This document shows, one piece after another, positions 18,354 to 46,674 of a stretch of DNA of 64,000 nt. The position numbers and the translations under genes were made by a program. Under the pieces are notes generated by a model. It searched no databases. It was not told where the DNA came from and was given only the letters and a program-made list of their open reading frames with translations. The stretch comes from Bisporella sp. PMI_857. Its lineage: Eukaryota; Ascomycota; Leotiomycetes; Helotiales; Helotiaceae. The stretch is taken from contig JAJSPD010000094.1 in assembly GCA_021307315.1 (NCBI GenBank), positions 1 through 64,000 on the forward strand, in the 5' to 3' direction. How positions within the stretch are numbered: the first letter of the stretch is position 1; each line of letters opens with the position of its first letter.

Positions 18354-19520
18354 ATAATTGGCTCTTTCTATTGACGCAACCTTCAGGAACCGATCCTGAC
18401 AAAAGCATGCACCCTCTCCAACCATTTCCCTTTGACCATCATGGTTTGGACAATTGTGCAATTATGATCCATGTGCTCCTGTTCGGGACTTCTGCATATT
18501 GTTTTGTTGTGTAGTTCCGTTCTTGCTCCCAGCGTGGCTGAGTATGCAATCGGTTCTCTGCCTGTTACAATGCGAGAGTGTCGTGGATGGCTCCTCCCAT
18601 CCCAACTATCCACTTTCTCGCGGACGAGCTTGTCGCAATCCGAATGCCGCAAATGGTAATCGCAATGTTTGTAGTCTCCTCCGTTCCGAGGTCCATTGTA
18701 GCGGGGAGCCGTTCCTCCCACGGAGCTATCACATAGGGTTGAATGACGTCTACCTTTTCTGTTGGCATGTTTTGATGCGCACGAGCTATCCTTTGCAATA
18801 GTGATGTGAATATCCGGAGTACTCTAGTGTTTAACTTTGATATCAGGTTCGTCTCGGGTACAGTAGGGTGCAATAAGTCTGCACCCCCCCCCCCCCCTTG
18901 TCAGCCAAGAAGCACTATGCTATTTTGAACAGTTTTATGCTGCCGCTTTTAAATATTCAACTGTGAATACAAAAATCAAAAGTATATTACTATTTTGTAT
19001 GTTATTTTGTACGTGATTTTAAATAGTAAGTACCAGTTTGCATATGTATCTATATATCCGTAAAGATGTTTGTAGTCGAAGCCCCTGCACCAAAGATAAT
19101 AAGTGTTTTGTATATTTAGAAAGCAAGTTTTAAAAAAGCGGCGGTGTAGAAGTGATCAAAGTAGTAAAGTAGATCTTGGCCTACAAGGGGGGTGGTCAGT
19201 CTAGATCCATGACTAAGCACGTTCACCCTTCCCCACCTGTAAAGAACCTGTTTACAGGGACGCGATCACGTCCGACTTGTGGTGCCTAGGCATGGCTGTT
19301 TGGGTCGAGATTGGGAGTTGGATTAGGTGCAGTGTGGGACTAGACAGGGATATGGTTAGCTGCAAAAACGGTCAGGTGACCGCGCGGCCAAATCCGAGTA
19401 TGTTAGAAATAGGATCTATGAGGGTATCACAGCGATAGAGTACAGGCTTATTAGGAGCGTTACAGATGATTATTTTCTCTACAATTACGGCTGTAATGTG
19501 TGTGTGTGCGTGAGTTTCTC
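18354..19520. other. intergenic, no gene seen
   Basis: No supported gene. A run of 14 C lies at 18884-18897. Downstream sequence is AT-rich and contains a short GT microsatellite near 19497 just before the MITE. Confidence 0.5.
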
Positions 19521-19522
19521 TA

Positions 19523-20740
19523 ACGTACCTGATCACTTAGCGGCCACATCAACCTGGCCGCTCAAAAACACACCAAAAATCACGATTTTGGCATGCTTGT
19601 ATCTCAACTATCATTTATCTTAATAGATCAAAACTTAAAGTTCAGTTTTCTGAGTATCTAAATAAGCAGTATTTTAATTTTCAAAATACTTAGTATTATA
19701 TGGATTCAGATATAGCATTTCACCCTAAACAACCCCAGCAATTTTTGCTTCTAAATAGCTATTAATTGTAATAGTCTCAACCTTTACTTATGTATAAGAA
19801 TTATAGTTGAATCGTTATATATAAAGTTTTATAAAGTTAGGTGAAGTAGTAGTTGAGATATAAACATGCCAAAATCGTGGAGGGCGATGGCTGAACACCT
19901 GTATGCGGTGCCCTCTACGAACCTGGAATCGGTATTACTCTCCTGAGGCAGCTTAATAACGATTCCAGAGCCGAGATTCAGCCCAAACAGTGATATGGGA
20001 GGATTTCTGGGGCCAAAGTGAAGGGAGGAGCAGAGTTTTCACGCCAAGGCCAGAGGTTTTTCTATGAGAGGTATCACTTCGATTCAACAACAAACCCTCT
20101 ACAATACTGAAAAACGAGTTGAAACACGACTTGAGCTACTTTCGAACCAGCTTTCAATCATTTGCACCTGTTTACTATACGAGTTTCGGAACACACAACG
20201 TGGAAAGGCTGAGGAAGTGAACCGGAAGAATGACGGAAAGTTACACGTACGACAAAATGACAACACAAGCACTTGGGCGGCTCGTACCTTCGATAAATAT
20301 ATACCCATGGCCGGAGGAAGGATCGCGGAGAAAAGTCGACAAGGCGAAGGCTGTAATGGAGAAAGACGTGTAGGGAACGGAAGAATCGACGGACGTGAAA
20401 GAAGGGCTCTTTTTCATTGGGACTCGATCCCCAACACTCACTGGAATATATGAGAGGTTTTTTGGAAGAAGTATGTTAAGGCTACTAGTCTATTAATATT
20501 GGCTAGTACAGTCCTTGTAGGGTACTTGTGCTCCTGCTTCGTCCTTTTTTACTCTCGAGACTTTGTATATATTGTCAACTCCCCAACCGAATTGCTAGGC
20601 CCGAGTGCCCTGGCCGTGCTACATAGTCCTCGACTGATACAGCACGTTAAAAGGAATAATAATAATGCCAAAATCGTGATTTTTGGTGTGTTTTTGAGCG
20701 GCCAGGTTGATGATGTGGCCAGCTAAGTGATCAGGTACGT
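19523..20740. mobile_element. TA-flanked MITE split by an insertion
   Basis: The ends ACGTACCTGATCACTTAG (from 19523) and its inverse (to 20740) form inverted repeats of about 75 bp and are flanked by TA on both sides (19521-19522 and 20741-20742), as for Tc1/mariner-type MITEs. A second inner inverted pair (TTGGCATGCTTGTATCTCAAC near 19590 and its inverse near 19850-19875) continues the arm. Removing the insertion at 19880-20664 and one flanking 14-bp repeat leaves a 419-bp element. Confidence 0.75.
19880..20664 (+). mobile_element. 785-bp insertion inside the MITE, retroposon-like
   Basis: The segment is bounded by a 14-bp direct repeat ATGCCAAAATCGTG (19866-19879 and 20665-20678). It interrupts the arm of the surrounding MITE exactly at that word. 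Its right end is A/T-rich (AAAAGGAATAATAATA), like a retroposon tail. A 129-codon frame at 20064-20453 (starting with an ATG) is basic and has no family I know. No inverted or long terminal repeats are visible. A SINE-like or 5'-truncated LINE insertion fits best. Confidence 0.55.
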
Positions 20741-20980
20741 TAGCTCCTTGGCCTAATTACGTAAGCCAACTCCTGACAGAGTAGGCGTATATTTTAGTTA
20801 ATTGGTGGTAACTCCCAAGTAAAATGAACTCCAAAATTAGATAGTTTGTCCCTATCTACTAACACTTCTGCCATTACTGACGGAGAGCATATGGTCTTAG
20901 ACAGAAAGTCTGGAGGAGAATCCAACATCTGCTCTGTGCCTCAACTAGTCTAGGTTGTCGCTCGACGACACGCTGATATC

Positions 20981-21595
20981 ATGTCGGGAATCGAGGTTAT
21001 CGGGTTGATTTCGGCCGTTATCGGCATCATCGAGGGCGTCTCGAAGCTTTACAATGCCATCGAGAATACCAGCCATCTTCCTAAAGCATTTCGCGAGGTG
21101 GCCCGGCGGCTGCAGCTTGTCCGGGTCACCCTCCAGGCTACCGAAGGACGTCTCCAGAAACACAATGTAGACGGAAACTCCTACACGGCTATCATGCCCA
21201 CGGTCGAAAGCTGCAAGGACAAGGCTGAGCGCCTGAGAAACATTCTACAAGACATGGTCGCACAGCCCGACGCTTCGCGCGTCGAGCACTATCGCGTCGT
21301 TGTGCGCAGGCTCGGCAAGGAGAGCAAGGTCGAGGAATTGATGAAGGGTATGTTGGAGGACGTGCAACTGTTGGCAACGAACCAGGCTGTCAAAGCCGTG
21401 GGGGAGGAGAATATCGATGAGCTTATGAGGGCCATTCAGGCGTTGTCCCAAGTGCCGCCCACGGCGACAGATGGTTCAACCTTTACATACCACGGGACGG
21501 GCGATCAGATCAACAACACAGGCAGTGGCACACAGAATATCAACAAGGGCAAGGGACAGCAACACATTGCACACTCGATCAGCGCTAGTGATTAA
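20981..21595 (+). CDS. SesA-domain effector with C-terminal sigma amyloid motif
   Basis: Predicted cell-death/incompatibility effector, 204 residues, single exon. Residues 1-155 are an all-helical SesA-type domain: a hydrophobic first helix (IEVIGLISAVIGIIEGVSKL) and the LPKAFREVARRL signature. Residues about 168-200 form a glycine/asparagine-rich repeat (GTGDQINNTGSGTQNINKGK) that matches the sigma-type amyloid motif known from SesA/SesB-type proteins of filamentous ascomycetes. Such motifs convert to a prion-like fold when templated by an NLR carrying the same motif. It converges on the paralogue at 22102-22716, which is also 204 residues. GC content is higher than in the surrounding intergenic DNA. 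The activity is inferred from family knowledge. Confidence 0.85.
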   Translation: MSGIEVIGLISAVIGIIEGVSKLYNAIENTSHLPKAFREVARRLQLVRVTLQATEGRLQKHNVDGNSYTAIMPTVESCKDKAERLRNILQDMVAQPDASRVEHYRVVVRRLGKESKVEELMKGMLEDVQLLATNQAVKAVGEENIDELMRAIQALSQVPPTATDGSTFTYHGTGDQINNTGSGTQNINKGKGQQHIAHSISASD

Positions 21596-22101: not shown

Positions 22102-22716
22102 CTATGACTTCCCAATTTTGATACTTTTCGCAATATTTTGGGTTCCACGACCTTTGTTGATGTTTTGAGTCCCTAGGCCCGTATTGTTGATCATATCGCC
22201 AGACCCAGAATGGAAGAATCCTGCTTTCCCATCCTCAGGCACAGAGGACTCCATGGTCGACAGCTCCTCAACAGCATCACACAACGCCATGGACTGCTCA
22301 GCCGTTGCCTTGATGAGCTCGTCCTCGACCAGGTCATTTGCGCATCCCAACAGCTTCAGGAGCACGACCTCGACTCTATCCTTGCCCTGTGTTCGTACAG
22401 CTGCTTGATAACGGTCCAGCCTCGACGTCTCCGCCGCGGGCGCGACGTCTTTGAAGATGCTCTCTAGGAGCTTGGCACTCTTCTTGCTAGCCTTCAGAGT
22501 GTTAATGAGGTCGTCGTCCTCCGTATCCAAGGTGCCTGCTTTCAGCTGATCCTGGGCACCCTGGAGAGTCTGCTGGACGAGGCCGACCCATCTGCCCACT
22601 TCGTGGAAGACTGGTAGGAGGTCGTCAACGCCATTCATAGTGGTGCATAGCTCCGCCGTTCTCTTGAGAGAAGCGAGAGTGTCAGGGAGTAGGTTTTCGA
22701 CCTTGTTGCTTGACAT
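22102..22716 (-). CDS. SesA-like effector with C-terminal sigma amyloid motif
   Basis: 204 residues from the ATG at 22716 (the upstream in-frame start is not ATG). The helical N-terminal domain has the LLPVFHEVGRWVGLVQQTL signature, like the LPxxFxEVxxxLxLV signature of SesA, then charged helices. The C-terminus, residues about 168-200, holds SGSGDMINNTGLGTQNIN followed by KGRGTQNIAKSI, nearly the same as the motif of the 20981 effector. The N-terminal domain is instead closer to the 27270 effector (shared ElCttm/ElCNNI, PVFxEVG, VQxxLQ). It is therefore intermediate between the other two, suggesting duplication and reshuffling of the motif. Predicted role: amyloid-triggered cell-death execution; not shown by sequence alone. 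Confidence 0.82.
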   Translation of the reverse strand: MSSNKVENLLPDTLASLKRTAELCTTMNGVDDLLPVFHEVGRWVGLVQQTLQGAQDQLKAGTLDTEDDDLINTLKASKKSAKLLESIFKDVAPAAETSRLDRYQAAVRTQGKDRVEVVLLKLLGCANDLVEDELIKATAEQSMALCDAVEELSTMESSVPEDGKAGFFHSGSGDMINNTGLGTQNINKGRGTQNIAKSIKIGKS

Positions 22717-24948: not shown

Positions 24949-26705
24949 TCATTCATTTCCTGACTCGCCTAGTTCCTTACTCAACTGCTCCAACCACGTA
25001 TCCGCCCAATCTCCATACTTCTGACTCTCCCTCACCATCACCTCCCTATACCGCCTCAACTTCCTCTTCGCCTTCCTTAACTTGGCCGCTAACTCCACCC
25101 TCTCACGCAGCCTCTCCTTCCCCTTCTCCTTCTCATTCACAATCTTAACCTCAACCAACACCCTCCTCGCCCTCACCACCGCCCTATCAAACATTGCTCT
25201 CCTCGCGCGCCGCTCATCCCCTATCTGCTTCGCCATCCGCAACGCTTTCCCAATATAACTCTCCGCCTCATTAACATACGCTATCTTCTCATCTGCCTTA
25301 TACTTCCGCGCATGTGACATCTCGCGGAAACACTCTGCTATTCCCGAATAAGCTCTTATTAAACCGCGGTCGTAGCGTGGGATGTGTCTTTTGGCTACGG
25401 AAATGGCAGATTTGTATACAAAGAGGGCGGCATGGAGGAGATTGTAGTCTTGCCGCCGGAGGTTGTTTTTGAAGGATTCGACATGGGAGTACGCATGATC
25501 GAGGAGCTTGCATGTTTGTGCGCGAAGGGACATGGTTGAGAGGTTGGAGGGGATGGTGATGATGGTGGAGAGGGCGGTGGTGGCATTTTCGAGGGTGAGT
25601 TCGGAGAGTAGGAGGGAGGTGTAGAGGAAGTTTCGGGGGGTTATTTCGCTGATTTTGAGCTGGAGCTGTGCTTGCAGCGGGGAGTTGTGCTCTAGCCAGG
25701 GGTAAAGGCTCGAGGTGAGTTTGGAGGTGATATAGGAATCTATTGCTGGGGAGATGGTTTCGGGTGTTAGTTCGAGATGCTGGATATTTTGCTCCGCGTT
25801 GCTTATACTGCCCTCGGAACCAAGGTATTTTCTCAACAGACTGCTATCATAGCTACTCACGAGCCAGTGAACATTGCTGCACGTCTCGAAGATATACTTT
25901 ATATGTGCCAGGAGCTGCTCTAATCCCTCTTCAACCGCATTGATAGCATCAACGATTAAATAAACTCTTGACTTTTCCAAGTCGAGGAGTATATTTTTTA
26001 AGATTTCCGAGAGGATGAAGACGGAGTTGGGATCTTGGTCGGAGGATTCGGGGATGGAAAAGCTGTCGAGATGGTCTTTTAGGAAGTCTTTTTGTAGGAC
26101 GAGGAGGTAGATGAGCCCTTTGAGGACGGTGGTTGCGTGTGGGAGTTTCGAGTCGTTGGTGTCGTTGCGCTGGCAGAAGAAGTACGCTCCTATATATCCC
26201 CTTCCTTCAGCCCCTTCCTCAATCTCCTTTTTATCTCCATGCTTCTTTTGACCATTAGCAACACCTAGCAAGAGCTTATTAACAACACCAACAAGCAACA
26301 TCGTCTTCCCTGTCCCCGAACCGCCTTTTATCCACAGTAGCTGGCTGTTCGGTTCATCGCGCCAGGCGACGAAGCGAGGATGCGAGAAGATCCAGTTGCT
26401 GCAAATGGGTAGATGAGGGCCGTTTTCGTGCTCGATGGCTGCTTTGTCTGCTTTGGGGTTTGTGTGGCGGAGGAGGGAGAGCTTGCGGTCGATGGTGGAG
26501 ATGGAGGAGCTAGAACCTAATTGATAATCAGCGGAAAATTTATGGGAAGGAAAGTGTGATGGGAAGAAGACTCACTGACAAAACTCATATGTCTTGCATT
26601 GAAGGTTGTGCCGCTCCCCGTGGAAACGTTGAGTATGCCATTGCTGGAGTTGTTGAATTGATCCCCTCCTCCTGAACATACGAATTTCATGGGGAGTTCT
26701 CCCAT
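24949..26705 (-). CDS. NACHT STAND receptor with N-terminal sigma amyloid motif
   Basis: Predicted NLR-like receptor that would template neighbouring effectors. Two exons, 26705-26576 and 26516-24949 (565 residues, phase-1 junction). Residues about 6-43 hold a sigma-type motif (CSGGGDQFNNSSNGILNVS, then TGSGTTFNARHMSF). The NACHT NTPase follows: the CSNWIFSHPRFVAWRDEPN lead-in, Walker A GGSGTGKT at 108-115 and Walker B VYLIVDA at about 228-234. Here the usual acidic residues after the Asp (DALDE-like) are replaced by INAVEE. Helical winged-helix-like sequence follows, then a helical stretch and a very basic coiled coil (about residues 480-565). No WD40, ankyrin or clear TPR sensor repeats are visible, so the C-terminus is short or unusual. 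It is transcribed divergently from the 27270 effector. An extra 5' exon cannot be excluded. Confidence 0.83.
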
Positions 26706-27269
26706 GGCGCTCTGAATTTCTTGAAGTATAAACACTTGGGGAAAATTCACAATTCAGAGTTAATGTTGCGAAAATGCCGGTTCGGGATGTTCCCTGGAGT
26801 CTGGACTGGATCGCAGGATTTCGTGTTTTCTACACATTGCAGCAGCACTCACTTCGCCGAAGCCTGATCAGTCACCTTGTGTAATGACGCGAGCGGGAAG
26901 TGGGGCACGATATGATGATAATCTACCACCACACCTCAGATAGCAACTGCAACAATTATACCTCCTCACTAGTAGGAACCATCTATAAGTGAAGGGTCCT
27001 AGTTGCCAATGACGTGTCTTAATAGAAACACCAAACAAAGTTGCTGCAATATGCTGTAAAGTACGATGGTATTTATTGCTTGATGGTGGCTCGGTGGCTG
27101 CTTACGCAATTTTGAAGTCGATCTTGGCGAGGCGGTCAAGATGCGATAATATATTGGCGTTGAAGAGGTGAGGCTGTTCCTCATTCTCATCATCTGCCAC
27201 TACCTGCCTCTTCCAACTAGCAAGCCACTACCCTCCACTTGACTCCATAATCTTTCCAAACAACCCAAG
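26706..27269. promoter_or_regulatory. shared divergent promoter region of receptor and effector
   Basis: 564 bp between the start codons of the NACHT receptor (minus) and its sigma effector (plus). Co-expression of the pair through this region is an inference from the head-to-head layout. I cannot name a binding site. Confidence 0.45.
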
Positions 27270-27938
27270 ATGTCCGACCAAAAAGTCAAAACCCTTCTCT
27301 CCGACACTCAGAGCTATCTCAAGAGTACAACGGAACTATGCAACAACATTGCCAACACCGAAGACTTCCCTCCAGTCTTCAAGGAGGTGGGAAAATGCGT
27401 GTTTCTTGTCCAGAATATTCTCCAATTCGGACAAAACCAACTGGAAACCAGTACCCTAGACATCGAAGATGAAAGGCTCCTGGTTGATCTCGAGAACAGC
27501 AAAAAAGAAGCCCTACACCTCTATAGGATCTTCAAAGTCATCGCACCGCCGTCAGAAACCACTCCTGCACAGCTGTATCAAAAAGTGATCCGCAACAGAT
27601 CCAAAGACTGCGTCGAGGGTATTTTGCTAAAGTTGTTAGAGGGATTAAATCGGCTTGTGACGAAAGATCTGATAACTGCGTCGGATGAGCAAGTTAATAC
27701 GTTGGGAGAGGTGATAGAGGAGGTTATGGGGTTGGGGAGTGAGGGGAAGGAGGAAGGGGGAAGGGAGGGCGCAGGGTATGAATTTTCGGGGACGGGAAAC
27801 ATGTTTAATAATACGGGGAATGGAAATCAGCATGTTAATACGGGGATGGGGCCGCAGCATAATGCTACTAATATGACTTTACTCAGTAGCAGTCTCTTAC
27901 AAGATGTGCTATTTCGATCAGGAGCTTTACACGTGTAA
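27270..27938 (+). CDS. SesA-like effector with sigma motif matching the adjacent receptor
   Basis: 222 residues from the ATG at 27270. Residues 1-150 are the helical SesA-like domain (DFPPVFKEVGKCVFLVQNIL). After a Gly/Glu-rich linker (EGKEEGGREG) comes the amyloid motif, about residues 172-206: YEFSGTGNMFNNTGNGNQHV then NTGMGPQHNATNMTLL. Its pattern F.xGxGxxFNN[ST]xNG...VxTGxGxxxNAxxM follows the receptor motif at 26576-26705 more closely than the other two effectors do. It is therefore the likely cognate partner. The last 15 residues after TLLSS overlap the start of the next ORF, so the 3' end may have been altered. The function is inferred from known fungal NLR/effector pairs. Confidence 0.83.
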   Translation: MSDQKVKTLLSDTQSYLKSTTELCNNIANTEDFPPVFKEVGKCVFLVQNILQFGQNQLETSTLDIEDERLLVDLENSKKEALHLYRIFKVIAPPSETTPAQLYQKVIRNRSKDCVEGILLKLLEGLNRLVTKDLITASDEQVNTLGEVIEEVMGLGSEGKEEGGREGAGYEFSGTGNMFNNTGNGNQHVNTGMGPQHNATNMTLLSSSLLQDVLFRSGALHV

Positions 27939-28239
27939 CGACTGGAAGTGGTCTTCATTCCGTCAGCCTTGCTCGAAAGCGTGCTGCGTAAGTGAAACTT
28001 GCAGCACGAAGCTCATTATGAAAACACGCTACATTAGCCATAAATGCAAGACCTGCAAGCAAATTGAGGCAAAAAAGCGCCGCATCCGCAAGTTGGATGA
28101 TAATATCAAGCGCTGGAGTGTTGAACCAGAGCGTTGGAGAGCATCGATAGAACGTTCTACGGACGACATCTGCCACTTATATGGCCAAATCATTCAGCGG
28201 GAGATGGCCCGATCCATCAAACGGAACGACCTTCGTTGA
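27904..28239 (+). CDS. small cysteine-rich basic protein of a common fungal family
   Basis: 111 residues from the ATG at 27904. The pattern MCYFDQ...C..W.WSSFRQ.C followed by C...ETC..KL and HKCKTCKQIE, then a basic helical stretch, matches a family of short fungal proteins of unknown role that I recognise by these spaced cysteines. The paired CxxC could bind zinc. It overlaps the last 35 bp of the upstream effector frame, an unusual arrangement that suggests one of the two was joined to its neighbour by a rearrangement. Confidence 0.55.
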   Translation: MCYFDQELYTCNDWKWSSFRQPCSKACCVSETCSTKLIMKTRYISHKCKTCKQIEAKKRRIRKLDDNIKRWSVEPERWRASIERSTDDICHLYGQIIQREMARSIKRNDLR

Positions 28240-33188: not shown

Positions 33189-34847
33189 GAAGTTGGGCCT
33201 GTTGCTAGGGAAATGCTCCACAGCGGTTATATCCATAATGTATGTGGTGGAGATACATCTCATATAATGGCGTCCTAGATAATGCTGATATGCATCACGT
33301 TCAATGCATACTGTTCATCTCAAACCTCATTGCTAACCTCATCTCGGCTTACTCTCGCCTCCGGCTCCTCACCCATCCTTAGGCCCGCTCTAAGCTCTAT
33401 ATCACCACCACGACCCCCTCCATACCTAGTAACATCAATCCCCCTCTCCCCTACCATCCAATCCTGCATCCCTAACCACTCGCTCCACTCTTCCTCCGCG
33501 CGTCTAATCTCGCTGTCAGTCGCCGTCTGCAACGGCCTCAAGAACGGCACCGTCTGCTCCCCAATATCATAGCCTTCCCTAGCCTCTAGCCAATTTGCGC
33601 TCTTGGCGGCGAACAAATAATTCCGACGCTCGATTTCGTGTAAAGGCCCAATACCAGCGCGCCACGAGTCACCGAAGAAACTGTGTAGCATGGGGGCGGT
33701 ATCGAAGCCGGTTACGATCAGGCGGCGAAGGTACAACGTTAGGCTTACGAAGGCTGACCCTTTGCTAGTGCCTCTCCATCTCGACAGCGATGGTCGCAGC
33801 GGCGGCTGGTGTCGGTGGTGTGAGTGGTGTGATGACGATGTATGTGCTAGACGTAGGAAGCTGAAAACAGAGCCAGAGTGCGAGCTATGCGAGGAAGAGG
33901 AGGCAGAAGAGGAGCCCAACACCGGGTAAGGCTGTTTTTGGAAGGGTAGCGCGATGTTGATGAGTGCGGCGACGGCTTGGACAAGCTCGCTGTGTTGGGC
34001 GTGGTCGAGGAAGTAGCAGTGGCAGGATTGGAAGTGCGGGAACCAATCGGAGATTTCCAAGGGCTCGTTTAGGCTCAGTTGTGGGTGGTTTGGATTGATG
34101 TTGCGAGGGGGAGCGGGGACGCCGCGATGGAAGGTAAAGGAGGGTCTGGCATCGTGGGAGGGAGTAAAGTCCATGATGGCTGAAGTGGAGAATGAAAGTT
34201 AGTTTCTGCGTGTAGTAGAAAGGTATGGAAGGAGTTGAGAGGTAGGCCGAAAGGTGAATGGAAATATATATCACAAGTTAATTCAACATTGCTCTCACCA
34301 CCACTCGCCTCCACGTTGACATTATCGCCATCCTCCTCAGCCGTGTCAGGGTTCTCATATAGTATAGCTTTTAAATCAAATCTCGCCCGTTGAGAAAAGT
34401 AAATATTCAGATGCAGGCTATCATTCATAGGTCAGGAATGAGCGTTGGTCGCAGGATGACCCTGCGAACTTCAGCCTTGCAGGGGGGGTGGAGATTAGCG
34501 AGAGGAAGGGGCAGATTAGCGAGAGACCAGAGCTCTTGATAGGCCCGCTGACAAGCTCGATAGCGATGATCCGTGCCTATTACTGAGTAACACAGCTGAG
34601 TGTGGCCAACTCCTCAGCTTGGACTGTTATCAGAATGCCATTTGTGTGAAGCTCCTTGTCTCTAAAAAATATTGGCCCAAACTTCCCGTACCGTCGTCAA
34701 ATTTGGCCGAGTCGCAGTCCGTGGTTAGCCTGCAAAGGATAGCTCTGTCTTCGAAAACGCTATGCAAATCGAATAACTAAGGGGCATCAACGCCTTATTG
34801 GGGGAGATCAACTAATGCTGTGCCATTTTATCCTTTCGACCTTCCGG
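33189..34847 (-). repeat. left arm of a 1,659-bp inverted duplication
   Basis: The reverse complement of 59439-61097, equal in length and nearly identical; I noticed only C/T differences near the inner end. It contains a complete gene and its 5' region. Sequence outside the two arms differs immediately. Confidence 0.9.
33320..34174 (-). CDS. conserved hypothetical protein (left duplicate)
   Basis: 284 residues from the ATG at 34174. I do not recognise a named domain, though the style fits a conserved ascomycete hypothetical protein. It has a Pro/His-rich head, a Ser/His-rich spacer (SSASSSSHSSHSGS), then SLTLYLRRLIVTGFDTAP, HSFFGDSWRAGIGPLHEIER and an acidic Trp-rich end (EEEWSEWLGMQDWMVGERG). 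Protein and gene are the same as those at 60112-60966. Upstream, about 34260-34428, lies an open stretch with a possible 5' exon (ATG at 34428) and a GTGAGA donor, so the true start could be further upstream. Confidence 0.7.
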   Translation of the reverse strand: MDFTPSHDARPSFTFHRGVPAPPRNINPNHPQLSLNEPLEISDWFPHFQSCHCYFLDHAQHSELVQAVAALINIALPFQKQPYPVLGSSSASSSSHSSHSGSVFSFLRLAHTSSSHHSHHRHQPPLRPSLSRWRGTSKGSAFVSLTLYLRRLIVTGFDTAPMLHSFFGDSWRAGIGPLHEIERRNYLFAAKSANWLEAREGYDIGEQTVPFLRPLQTATDSEIRRAEEEWSEWLGMQDWMVGERGIDVTRYGGGRGGDIELRAGLRMGEEPEARVSRDEVSNEV

Positions 34848-45349: not shown

Positions 45350-46298
45350 GTCGAGCTACGTCACCTCAGCATGCTGATGCACGAACATTCGTCAAACACT
45401 ACCTTCCACGGCGGGTCACGGCGGACACTGCAGCTATTGTGCGCGGCCTAGAGCCCCAACACGAGTTGATGCGTGCAGCATGCAGGATGAGTCGGTGGAT
45501 TAATCCAGACCGGCCCCAAGAGCTTACGGAGGAGCAATCTTCCTCCGTCAATACAGACCCTGGCATCCAACAACTTCTGGCCCGGCGAACACAATCGAAA
45601 AGCCGTTTCGAAAAAGAGGCCACTAAATAGCCCGTATACTAGCTCCTTAACCGAGAGATTTTAATGAAAGGCAGCGACAAAGAGCAGCACTTTTGAAGCA
45701 AGTACAAAGCAAGTGGGATCTGGAACATCCCGTTCAAGAAATCGAACTACAACTTTCTGGCTTTAAGTTTACCGAGGATGTGAAGGCTACTTTGGATTTG
45801 TCCGACGAGATGCCTCCAATACAGAGACGCCTAGTTGAGACTGTTATGACCCCCCCTAGAACAACTTTAGAAGAAAAGTTTCGCCACCGCAATGCCGCCA
45901 TCGATGCGGTCGCTGTGTATTGCAAATATGAAGAAGGTGGGCCTCCTCGAGGAAGGCAGCCTAGGAGAAAAGCGAGCATATTGTTATCCCCAACTCTTGA
46001 TCCACAAGTAATGGCTGCCATGGCTGAGGAGAAGGCGCTAAATGCAGCTATGTTGTCAGTGTTCACAGAGAAGAGACCCCTCATATGCTTCGTTTGCCTT
46101 GGGCGGAAGAGTCTTTCATTCGAAAAACGCGTGTATACATTTGCAAGTCCGGGAGATCTTACCAAGCACTTCAAGCGGAAGCATTTGTCGCAGATCAACG
46201 AAGGACAAAAGCCATATTGTAACATATGCCCAATGCAGCTCGAGCATAAAATGCCCTTTCAAAGTCATGCTTTCGCTATACACGGTACGGTATCTTAG
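45350..46298 (+). pseudogene. DUF3435/FluG-type tyrosine-recombinase-like relic 1
   Basis: Contains HADARTFVKHYLPRRVTADT and IVRGLEPQHELMRAACRMSR then DRPQELTEEQSSSVN. After a stop and frame change near 45640-45670 it continues NERQRQRAALLKQVQSKWDL, MPPIQRRLVETVMTPPRTTL and a Cys/His-rich end (CFVCLG...HFKRKH...CNICP..L..K..F..H). This order is typical of the C-terminal half of fungal DUF3435 proteins, the group that includes the captain recombinases of Starship elements. The HYxxRR segment would carry the catalytic Tyr. The N-terminal half is missing, so it is a relic. Confidence 0.6.
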
Positions 46299-46343
46299 AA
46301 TCTCAAGGACCTGCTAAAAGTGTGCAGTTAGCTAGCCTGTTCT

Positions 46344-46674
46344 ATGAGCCGCTCGATCGATCCCCGTCGACCACGGAAATTGACTCCTGGGCAATCTGCA
46401 TCATTCAATAGGCTTCCATGCATTGTTAAATTAAAACGTCGCATCATGAAACTCTCAGGCGTCCGAGGAGATCCTGAGGGGGAAGAGGAATATCAGAAGG
46501 CTCGTCGTCGCCTTCAGAGTGAGAAGCAGCGGCAGCGGAGGCTCCTCCTAGTCGACCTTTGTGGACCGTTTCAAGAAGGAACAGCCGGTGATCGATAGCG
46601 AGCAGCAGTTAGCTGGAAAAGTGGTTGACGAGGACACGCGAAACGCATTAAAGAAACGCCAGGAACCTGGGTGA
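46344..46674 (+). pseudogene. DUF3435-type relic 2, a different lineage
   Basis: Starts MSRSIDPRRPRKLTPGQSAS, the equivalent of CRMSRWINPDRPQELTEEQS in relic 1 but clearly diverged, then EEEYQKARRRLQSEKQRQRR. After a frame change near 46555 it reads VDRFKKEQPVIDSEQQLAGK and VVDEDTRNALKKRQEPG then stop. It sits 46 bp after relic 1 and repeats the same domain segment, so it is a second element's fragment rather than a continuation. Confidence 0.55.

What the first reader, a model, noticed from the sequence alone, without database searches (positions are those of the whole stretch)
24949..27938. Divergent NACHT receptor and SesA-type effector sharing a sigma amyloid motif
The receptor's N-terminus (CSGGGDQFNNSSNGILNVS...) and the C-terminus of the effector at 27270 (FSGTGNMFNNTGNGNQHV...) carry the same Gly/Asn repeat, head-to-head across 564 bp. 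In fungi, this layout (effector motif at C-terminus, matching motif at the NLR N-terminus, adjacent genes) is the known signature of prion-like signal transfer to cell death. The match FNN-x-NG...TGxGxxxNA is specific to this pair.
Basis: partly seen in the sequence, partly recalled or inferred. Interest (0 to 1): 0.92.

Follow-up and report, generated by a model that had tools for sequence, protein, structure and literature searches.

The report
Fungal prion-style receptor and effector genes
A fungal immune-type receptor gene and three nearby genes for cell-death-type proteins carry the same short amyloid-type tag, an arrangement already known in other fungi, but here the receptor and two of the three proteins have lost parts that are normally needed for activity.

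Summary
A 565-aa NACHT-type receptor (26705-24949, minus) has a 130-bp first exon, a 59-bp intron with good splice sites, and an N-terminal Gly/Asn motif. A SesA protein starts 564 bp away in divergent orientation (27270-27938) and ends in the same motif. Searching the 55.6-Mb genome with the receptor's 38-aa motif returned only itself and this neighbour.

The exact string it named occurs only in this pair among the ORFs held, but overall similarity is barely pair-specific: 15 of 34 residues shared against 13 for each of the other two, and 65% bootstrap.

This is the published sigma/ses type of STAND-effector cluster (Daskalov 2012, PMC3321046), so a new member of a known kind. Two features are unusual. 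The receptor's Walker B and sensor I read DAINA and SSYD, against DALDE and SSRN in 13 of 13 complete homologues. The neighbour and one further SesA copy lack the hydrophobic first helix present in the other seven SesA proteins examined, the third copy included. The simple "receptor fires this killer" reading is therefore only partly supported.

The parts
26576..26705 (-). Receptor exon 1 (starts MGELPMKFVC), encoding the sigma motif
   Evidence: ATG in a good context, donor GTGAGT, phase 1; PF17106 21.3 bits on the spliced protein, below the cut-off
26517..26575 (-). 59-bp intron, phase 1, directly after the motif
   Evidence: GT..branch-like CTGAT..AG; phase-1 intron after the motif also in the fusion-gene models C30, C225, C223
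24949..26516 (-). Receptor exon 2: NACHT-type NTPase (NPHP3_N PF24883) and a helical C-terminus without a recognised repeat family
   Evidence: PF24883 E 6.8e-24; PF05729 NACHT only 11.1 bits, below its cut-off; no Pfam hit on the last 190 aa; single-sequence model of the C-terminus helical
26592..26672 (-). Sigma motif of the receptor, three 9-residue units GGGDQFNNS / SNGILNVST / GSGTTFNAR
26706..27269 (.). 564-bp divergent intergenic region
27270..27938 (+).
   Evidence: PF17107 E 1.7e-16; max 15-residue hydropathy -0.33
27783..27884 (+). Sigma motif of S3
   Evidence: only non-self hit of the receptor motif in the genome search, E 0.018
20981..21595 (+). Effector S1, 204 aa, SesA plus sigma motif, with hydrophobic N-terminal helix
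   Evidence: PF17107 E 1.2e-40, PF17106 36.8 bits, over its cut-off; hydropathy 2.37
22102..22716 (-). Effector S2, 204 aa, SesA plus sigma motif, polar first helix; convergent with S1
   Evidence: PF17107 E 5e-25, PF17106 33.1 bits, over its cut-off; hydropathy 0.45

Best explanation
This is a sigma-type (ses-type) STAND/effector gene cluster. Inferred mechanism: the NACHT-type receptor clusters on activation, its N-terminal sigma motifs nucleate an amyloid-like fold, and that fold is templated onto the matching C-terminal motifs of the SesA proteins. S3 is the nearest sequence match and S1/S2 form a second, closely matched pair. S1, which keeps a hydrophobic first helix, is the likely membrane-acting executor. 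S2 and S3, which lack it, more likely act as relay, seed or brake. Shown here: gene models by sequence, domains, motif homology, clustering, and loss of the helix and of NTPase residues. Inferred: splicing in vivo, amyloid formation, templating and cell death.
For: Motif and domain profiles. The receptor motif finds only S3 beyond itself in 55.6 Mb (only first-look candidates are scored); the S3 motif finds S1, S2 and the receptor; all four genes lie within 7 kb. Elsewhere in this genome the same SesA-sigma unit precedes a NACHT (C30, C225) or NB-ARC-like (C223) NTPase, joinable by a phase-1 intron directly after the motif; the receptor has its intron at the same place and phase (C30 NACHT 60.5 bits, C223 NB-ARC 23.3 bits, just under its 23.5 cut-off). 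Motif similarity does not follow SesA similarity: S1-S2 are 25% identical in SesA but 68% in the motif, S2-S3 46% and 44%; Fisher P 1e-4 on informative columns. S1-S2 motif identity is not recent gene conversion: 11 of 23 identical residues use different codons. ORFs are intact, with pN 0.35 and pS 0.73 for S2-S3. Published sigma clusters show the same features.
Against: Receptor Walker B DAINA and sensor SSYD differ from 13 of 13 complete homologues, and mutating these motifs in NWD2 killed activity. S2 and S3 lack the hydrophobic helix. The receptor-S3 preference over S1/S2 is weak, and the S1 motif search did not return the receptor at E up to 10. No C-terminal WD, ANK or TPR repeats were detected. 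PF17106 scores of the receptor and S3, and the receptor's PF05729 NACHT score, are below Pfam's cut-offs. pS is near saturation, so pN/pS is only rough. No expression, splicing or fibre data.
Confidence: 0.62

Rival explanations
1. A disarmed, HET-s-like state. S2 and S3 are SesA proteins turned from killers into prion-like triggers or brakes of S1, and the receptor has lost or changed its NTPase cycle because its original role became dispensable, as in het-s strains of Podospora, where nwd2 is a pseudogene and HET-s lacks pore activity.
For: Helix loss shared by S2 and S3 but not by the seven other SesA proteins examined. S2 and S3 are 46% identical in SesA, so the helix-poor form most simply predates their split and was kept with intact frames. 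Receptor motif substitutions. The published het-s/nwd2 case (PMC4344463).
Against: The receptor frame is intact. S1, with a motif 68% identical to that of S2, lies beside it, so a freely propagating S2 prion would be expected to trigger S1. Hydropathy is not a toxicity assay.
Confidence: 0.23
2. A decaying or rearranged piece of SesA-sigma-NACHT receptors: the common motif is only inherited ancestry and no signalling occurs.
For: SesA-sigma-NTPase fusion genes are predicted in this genome with the same intron position. Relics with stops exist at C244, C250 and C258. The receptor NTPase motifs are altered. S3 overlaps a downstream ORF by 35 bp.
Against: Four intact ORFs. Motifs stay aligned in 9-residue register while domains diverge, and S1-S2 motif identity (68%) far exceeds their domain identity (25%). 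pN is below pS.
Confidence: 0.12
3. Chance or low-complexity Gly/Asn similarity with no common origin.
For: Both motifs are biased in composition; the Pfam scores of receptor and S3 are subthreshold.
Against: Composition-preserving shuffles never reach the score (0 of 1000). The profile hit is E 4.7e-5 with the receptor left out. The genome search returns only the neighbour. The motif sits at the expected termini next to SesA and NACHT.
Confidence: 0.03

Closest known systems
sigma/ses locus type (sesA, sesB, het-eN of Nectria haematococca and relatives; PMC3321046)
   Same: STAND gene with N-terminal extension, adjacent sesA-type gene(s) with homologous C-terminal extension, motif of A (GxGxQFNxx) and B (GGTQNINT) units repeated three times, 5' intron in the STAND gene het-eN, in certain loci two sesA copies, motifs alike within a cluster
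   Different: Three SesA copies, and no sesB noticed (no dedicated sesB search was made); two copies lack the hydrophobic first helix; receptor Walker B and sensor I altered; no recognised C-terminal repeats
NWD2/HET-S of Podospora anserina (PMC4344463)
   Same: Divergent receptor and effector genes about 0.6 kb apart, N-terminal receptor motif matching the C-terminal effector motif
   Different: Different motif (sigma, not the HET-s 21-residue repeat) and SesA instead of HeLo; no HET-s prion-domain model listed at E up to 1
All-in-one SesA-NLRs (here C30, C225 with NACHT, C223 with NB-ARC-like)
   Same: Same SesA domain, sigma motif and intron position
   Different: There effector and receptor are predicted to be one protein; in the window they are separate genes

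Membership tests
sigma/ses STAND-effector cluster | STAND gene without N-terminal effector domain but with N-terminal sigma motif | tested here: met
   PF17106 itself is subthreshold, the genome-built profile gives E 4.7e-5
sigma/ses STAND-effector cluster | Adjacent effector-domain gene with homologous C-terminal motif | tested here: met
   S3 at 564 bp
sigma/ses STAND-effector cluster | Three motif A/B units (GxGxQFNxx, GGTQNINT) | tested here: met
   Three 9-residue units, read by eye in all four proteins and scored for receptor, S3 and S1; the receptor's middle unit is degenerate; consensus
sigma/ses STAND-effector cluster | Motifs more alike within the cluster than with the same family elsewhere | tested here: met
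   Within this genome only: receptor scores 81, 64, 62 with S3, S1, S2, and 27-52 with the seven others. Other species could not be compared
sigma/ses STAND-effector cluster | C-terminal WD, ANK, TPR or HEAT repeats in the STAND protein | tested here: inconclusive
   No Pfam hit; helical but low-confidence single-sequence model
sigma/ses STAND-effector cluster | Motif forms amyloid and templates the partner | not testable with these tools
   Needs fibre and cross-seeding assays
Canonical active NACHT NTPase | Walker A | tested here: met
   GGSGTGKT
Canonical active NACHT NTPase | Walker B second acidic pair and sensor I Arg | tested here: not met
   DAINA and SSYD; 13 of 13 complete homologues have DALDE and SSRN
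Canonical active NACHT NTPase | Pfam NACHT (PF05729) over cut-off | tested here: not met
   11.1 bits against 26.7, while the C30 homologue scores 60.5; the receptor does pass NPHP3_N at 85.3 bits
HeLo-like pore former | Hydrophobic N-terminal helix | tested here: not met
   S3 -0.33 and S2 0.45 against 1.89-2.84 in seven others; S1 meets it at 2.37
HeLo-like pore former | HeLo/MLKL-type helical bundle fold | tested here: inconclusive
HET-S/NWD2 | HET-s type prion-forming motif | tested here: not met
   Not listed at E up to 1 for the receptor or S3

The most novel reading that the evidence does not exclude
An independent counterpart of the het-s/het-S situation built from other parts: SesA proteins that lost the membrane helix before they duplicated serve as non-killing amyloid seeds or brakes for the intact killer S1, under a receptor whose NTPase cycle has changed. 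Prion-type control would then have evolved more than once by disarming an executor.
Probability: 0.2. Interest if true: 0.75.

Novelty: new member of a known kind. Interest (0 to 1): 0.38.

Why it matters
The cluster holds, within 7 kb, a sigma receptor, one helix-bearing and two helix-poor SesA proteins with graded motif similarity. That makes it a natural test set for whether sigma motifs carry partner specificity and whether a SesA protein can be converted from executor to seed or brake, as happened with HET-s.

Tried and rejected

Strict pair specificity: the literal string is confined to the pair among the 7552 held ORFs, but as overall similarity it was rejected. Receptor-S3 is best only in 65% of bootstraps, with 34-column scores of 75, 64 and 61 for S3, S1 and S2. 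Receptor residues shared with S3 alone number 6 columns; those shared with S1 and/or S2 but not S3 also number 6.

Fold comparison of S3: no Foldseek match at E <= 0.001; no MLKL or HET-s chain in the 50 rows shown by either search, which does not exclude kinship. The receptor model is poor (mean pLDDT 44), so I drew nothing from its NACHT part. PDB sequence searches gave one weak hit (E 0.91) for S1 and none for the receptor. A regular-expression scan for sigma motifs missed the receptor itself and was replaced by the profile.

Dropped before counts: of the 19 SesA hits, helix hydropathy was done for 9; the relics without N-terminus and the weaker hits were not examined. Of 19 receptor loci L029-L047, L043 is the window gene itself, L042, L046 and L047 failed my P-loop/ORF filter, and L044 (which reads DALGEC at Walker B) and L045 are incomplete, leaving 13. 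The C59 sigma ORF was scored but left out of the training set; that profile scored it E 0.13.

Literature: the paper search failed each time, so I make no claim about what is absent from print. Papers seen: PMC3321046 (passages, sections 9 and 11), PMC4344463 (abstract, passages, sections 5 and 19), PMC4986451 (abstract, passages), PMC3531502 (passages), PMC3359984 (a find without hits). PMC4285094 was a wrong identifier from memory and unrelated. The reading of DUF3435 as Starship/Crypton-type recombinase, and of the N-terminal helix as the part to compare between SesA and HeLo, came first from recall; the latter was then checked.

Full report
The window is part of a 55.6-Mb, 284-contig genome (contig C279, 1-64000). 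Intron structure and gene families point to a filamentous fungus; the species is not given and I did not identify it.

Gene models. The receptor starts at 26705, has a 130-bp first exon, a 59-bp phase-1 intron and a long second exon ending at 24949, 565 aa in all. Effector S3 is a single exon, 27270-27938. Two further SesA-sigma genes, S1 (20981-21595, plus) and S2 (22716-22102, minus), lie about 5.7 and 4.6 kb before S3 and are convergent with each other. The receptor passes Pfam NPHP3_N (85.3 bits) but not Pfam NACHT (11.1 bits against 26.7).

Motif. Pfam's sigma model scores S1 36.8 and S2 33.1 bits, above its 27.6-bit cut-off, and the receptor 21.3 and S3 14.7, below it. Further support: the receptor-S3 alignment is gapless over 34 columns and beats all of 1000 shuffles. 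A profile of nine motifs, S3 included and the receptor excluded, finds the receptor exon at E 4.7e-5 among 7552 ORFs of partly overlapping loci. The receptor motif searched against the genome at E up to 10 gives itself and S3 (E 0.018) only; the S3 motif gives itself, S1 (1e-4), S2 (7.5e-4) and the receptor (0.007); the S1 motif gives itself, S2 and S3 but not the receptor. These genome searches score only first-look candidates, so absence of other hits is not proof. The motif is three 9-residue units (units of receptor, S3 and S1 scored), matching the published A/B unit description.

Specificity. Receptor scores are S3 81, S1 64, S2 62, the other seven motifs 27-52. Identities are 15, 13 and 13 of 34, and S3 is strictly best in 65% of bootstraps. 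So the receptor belongs with the local set, with only a weak preference for S3. A stronger signal is the conflict between domain and motif: S2 and S3 are closest in SesA (46%) while S1 and S2 are closest in the motif (68% against 25% in SesA); informative columns 13:46 in SesA against 10:2 in the motif, Fisher P 1e-4. Codon differences in 11 of 23 identical residues argue against recent gene conversion. This fits motif groups held together by selection for co-assembly (inference).

Architecture elsewhere in the genome. C30 and C225 are predicted SesA-sigma-NACHT genes and C223 a SesA-sigma-NB-ARC-like gene, each with a phase-1 intron just after the motif, the same place and phase as in the window receptor. 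Pfam gives C30 NACHT 60.5 bits and C223 NB-ARC 23.3 bits, a hair under its 23.5 cut-off. C225's NTPase part rests on its match to the receptor (E 4.6e-9). One search found no second NACHT stretch inside the window that could extend S1, S2 or S3. Among the loci examined, only the window has separate SesA-sigma genes and a sigma receptor without SesA. C244, C250 and C258 hold broken relics. C59 has a strong sigma ORF (42.1 bits) between a HET-domain gene and an NLR-like gene with ankyrin repeats, not studied further.

Interpretation. The cluster is a new member of the sigma/ses kind. The published mechanism, receptor clustering that templates an amyloid fold onto effectors, is the best inference. 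The bolder reading is a het-s-like disarming of executors with a changed receptor. Neither splicing, fibre formation nor cell death was tested.

Noticed in passing
33189-34847 and 61097-59439: A 1659-bp inverted duplication, 99.9% identical, holding a 292-aa ORF without Pfam match.
   Followed up: partly
19520-20743: Element of about 1.2 kb with terminal inverted repeats of about 75-79 bp (95% over 79 columns), ending about 240 bp upstream of S1; looks like a non-autonomous DNA transposon.
   Followed up: partly
45367-46565: DUF3435 (PF11917) fragments; 44 matching stretches in the genome, many with stops; family recalled as Starship/Crypton-type recombinases.
   Followed up: partly
27904-28239: A Cys-rich ORF overlaps the last 35 bp of S3 on the same strand; S3 has about 15 more C-terminal residues than S1/S2, perhaps from stop loss or an inserted neighbour.
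   Followed up: partly
L048:2049-4410 (C279 about 66.0-68.4 kb): HET-domain ORF followed by NACHT frames, a HET-NACHT receptor or relic beyond the window end.
   Followed up: partly
31-37 kb and 62.5-63.9 kb: Dispersed repeats of roughly 75-93% identity, transposon-like.
   Followed up: no
L018:4418-4717 (C59:13417-13716): Strong sigma motif in a 100-aa ORF between a HET-domain gene and an NLR-like gene with ankyrin repeats.
   Followed up: partly
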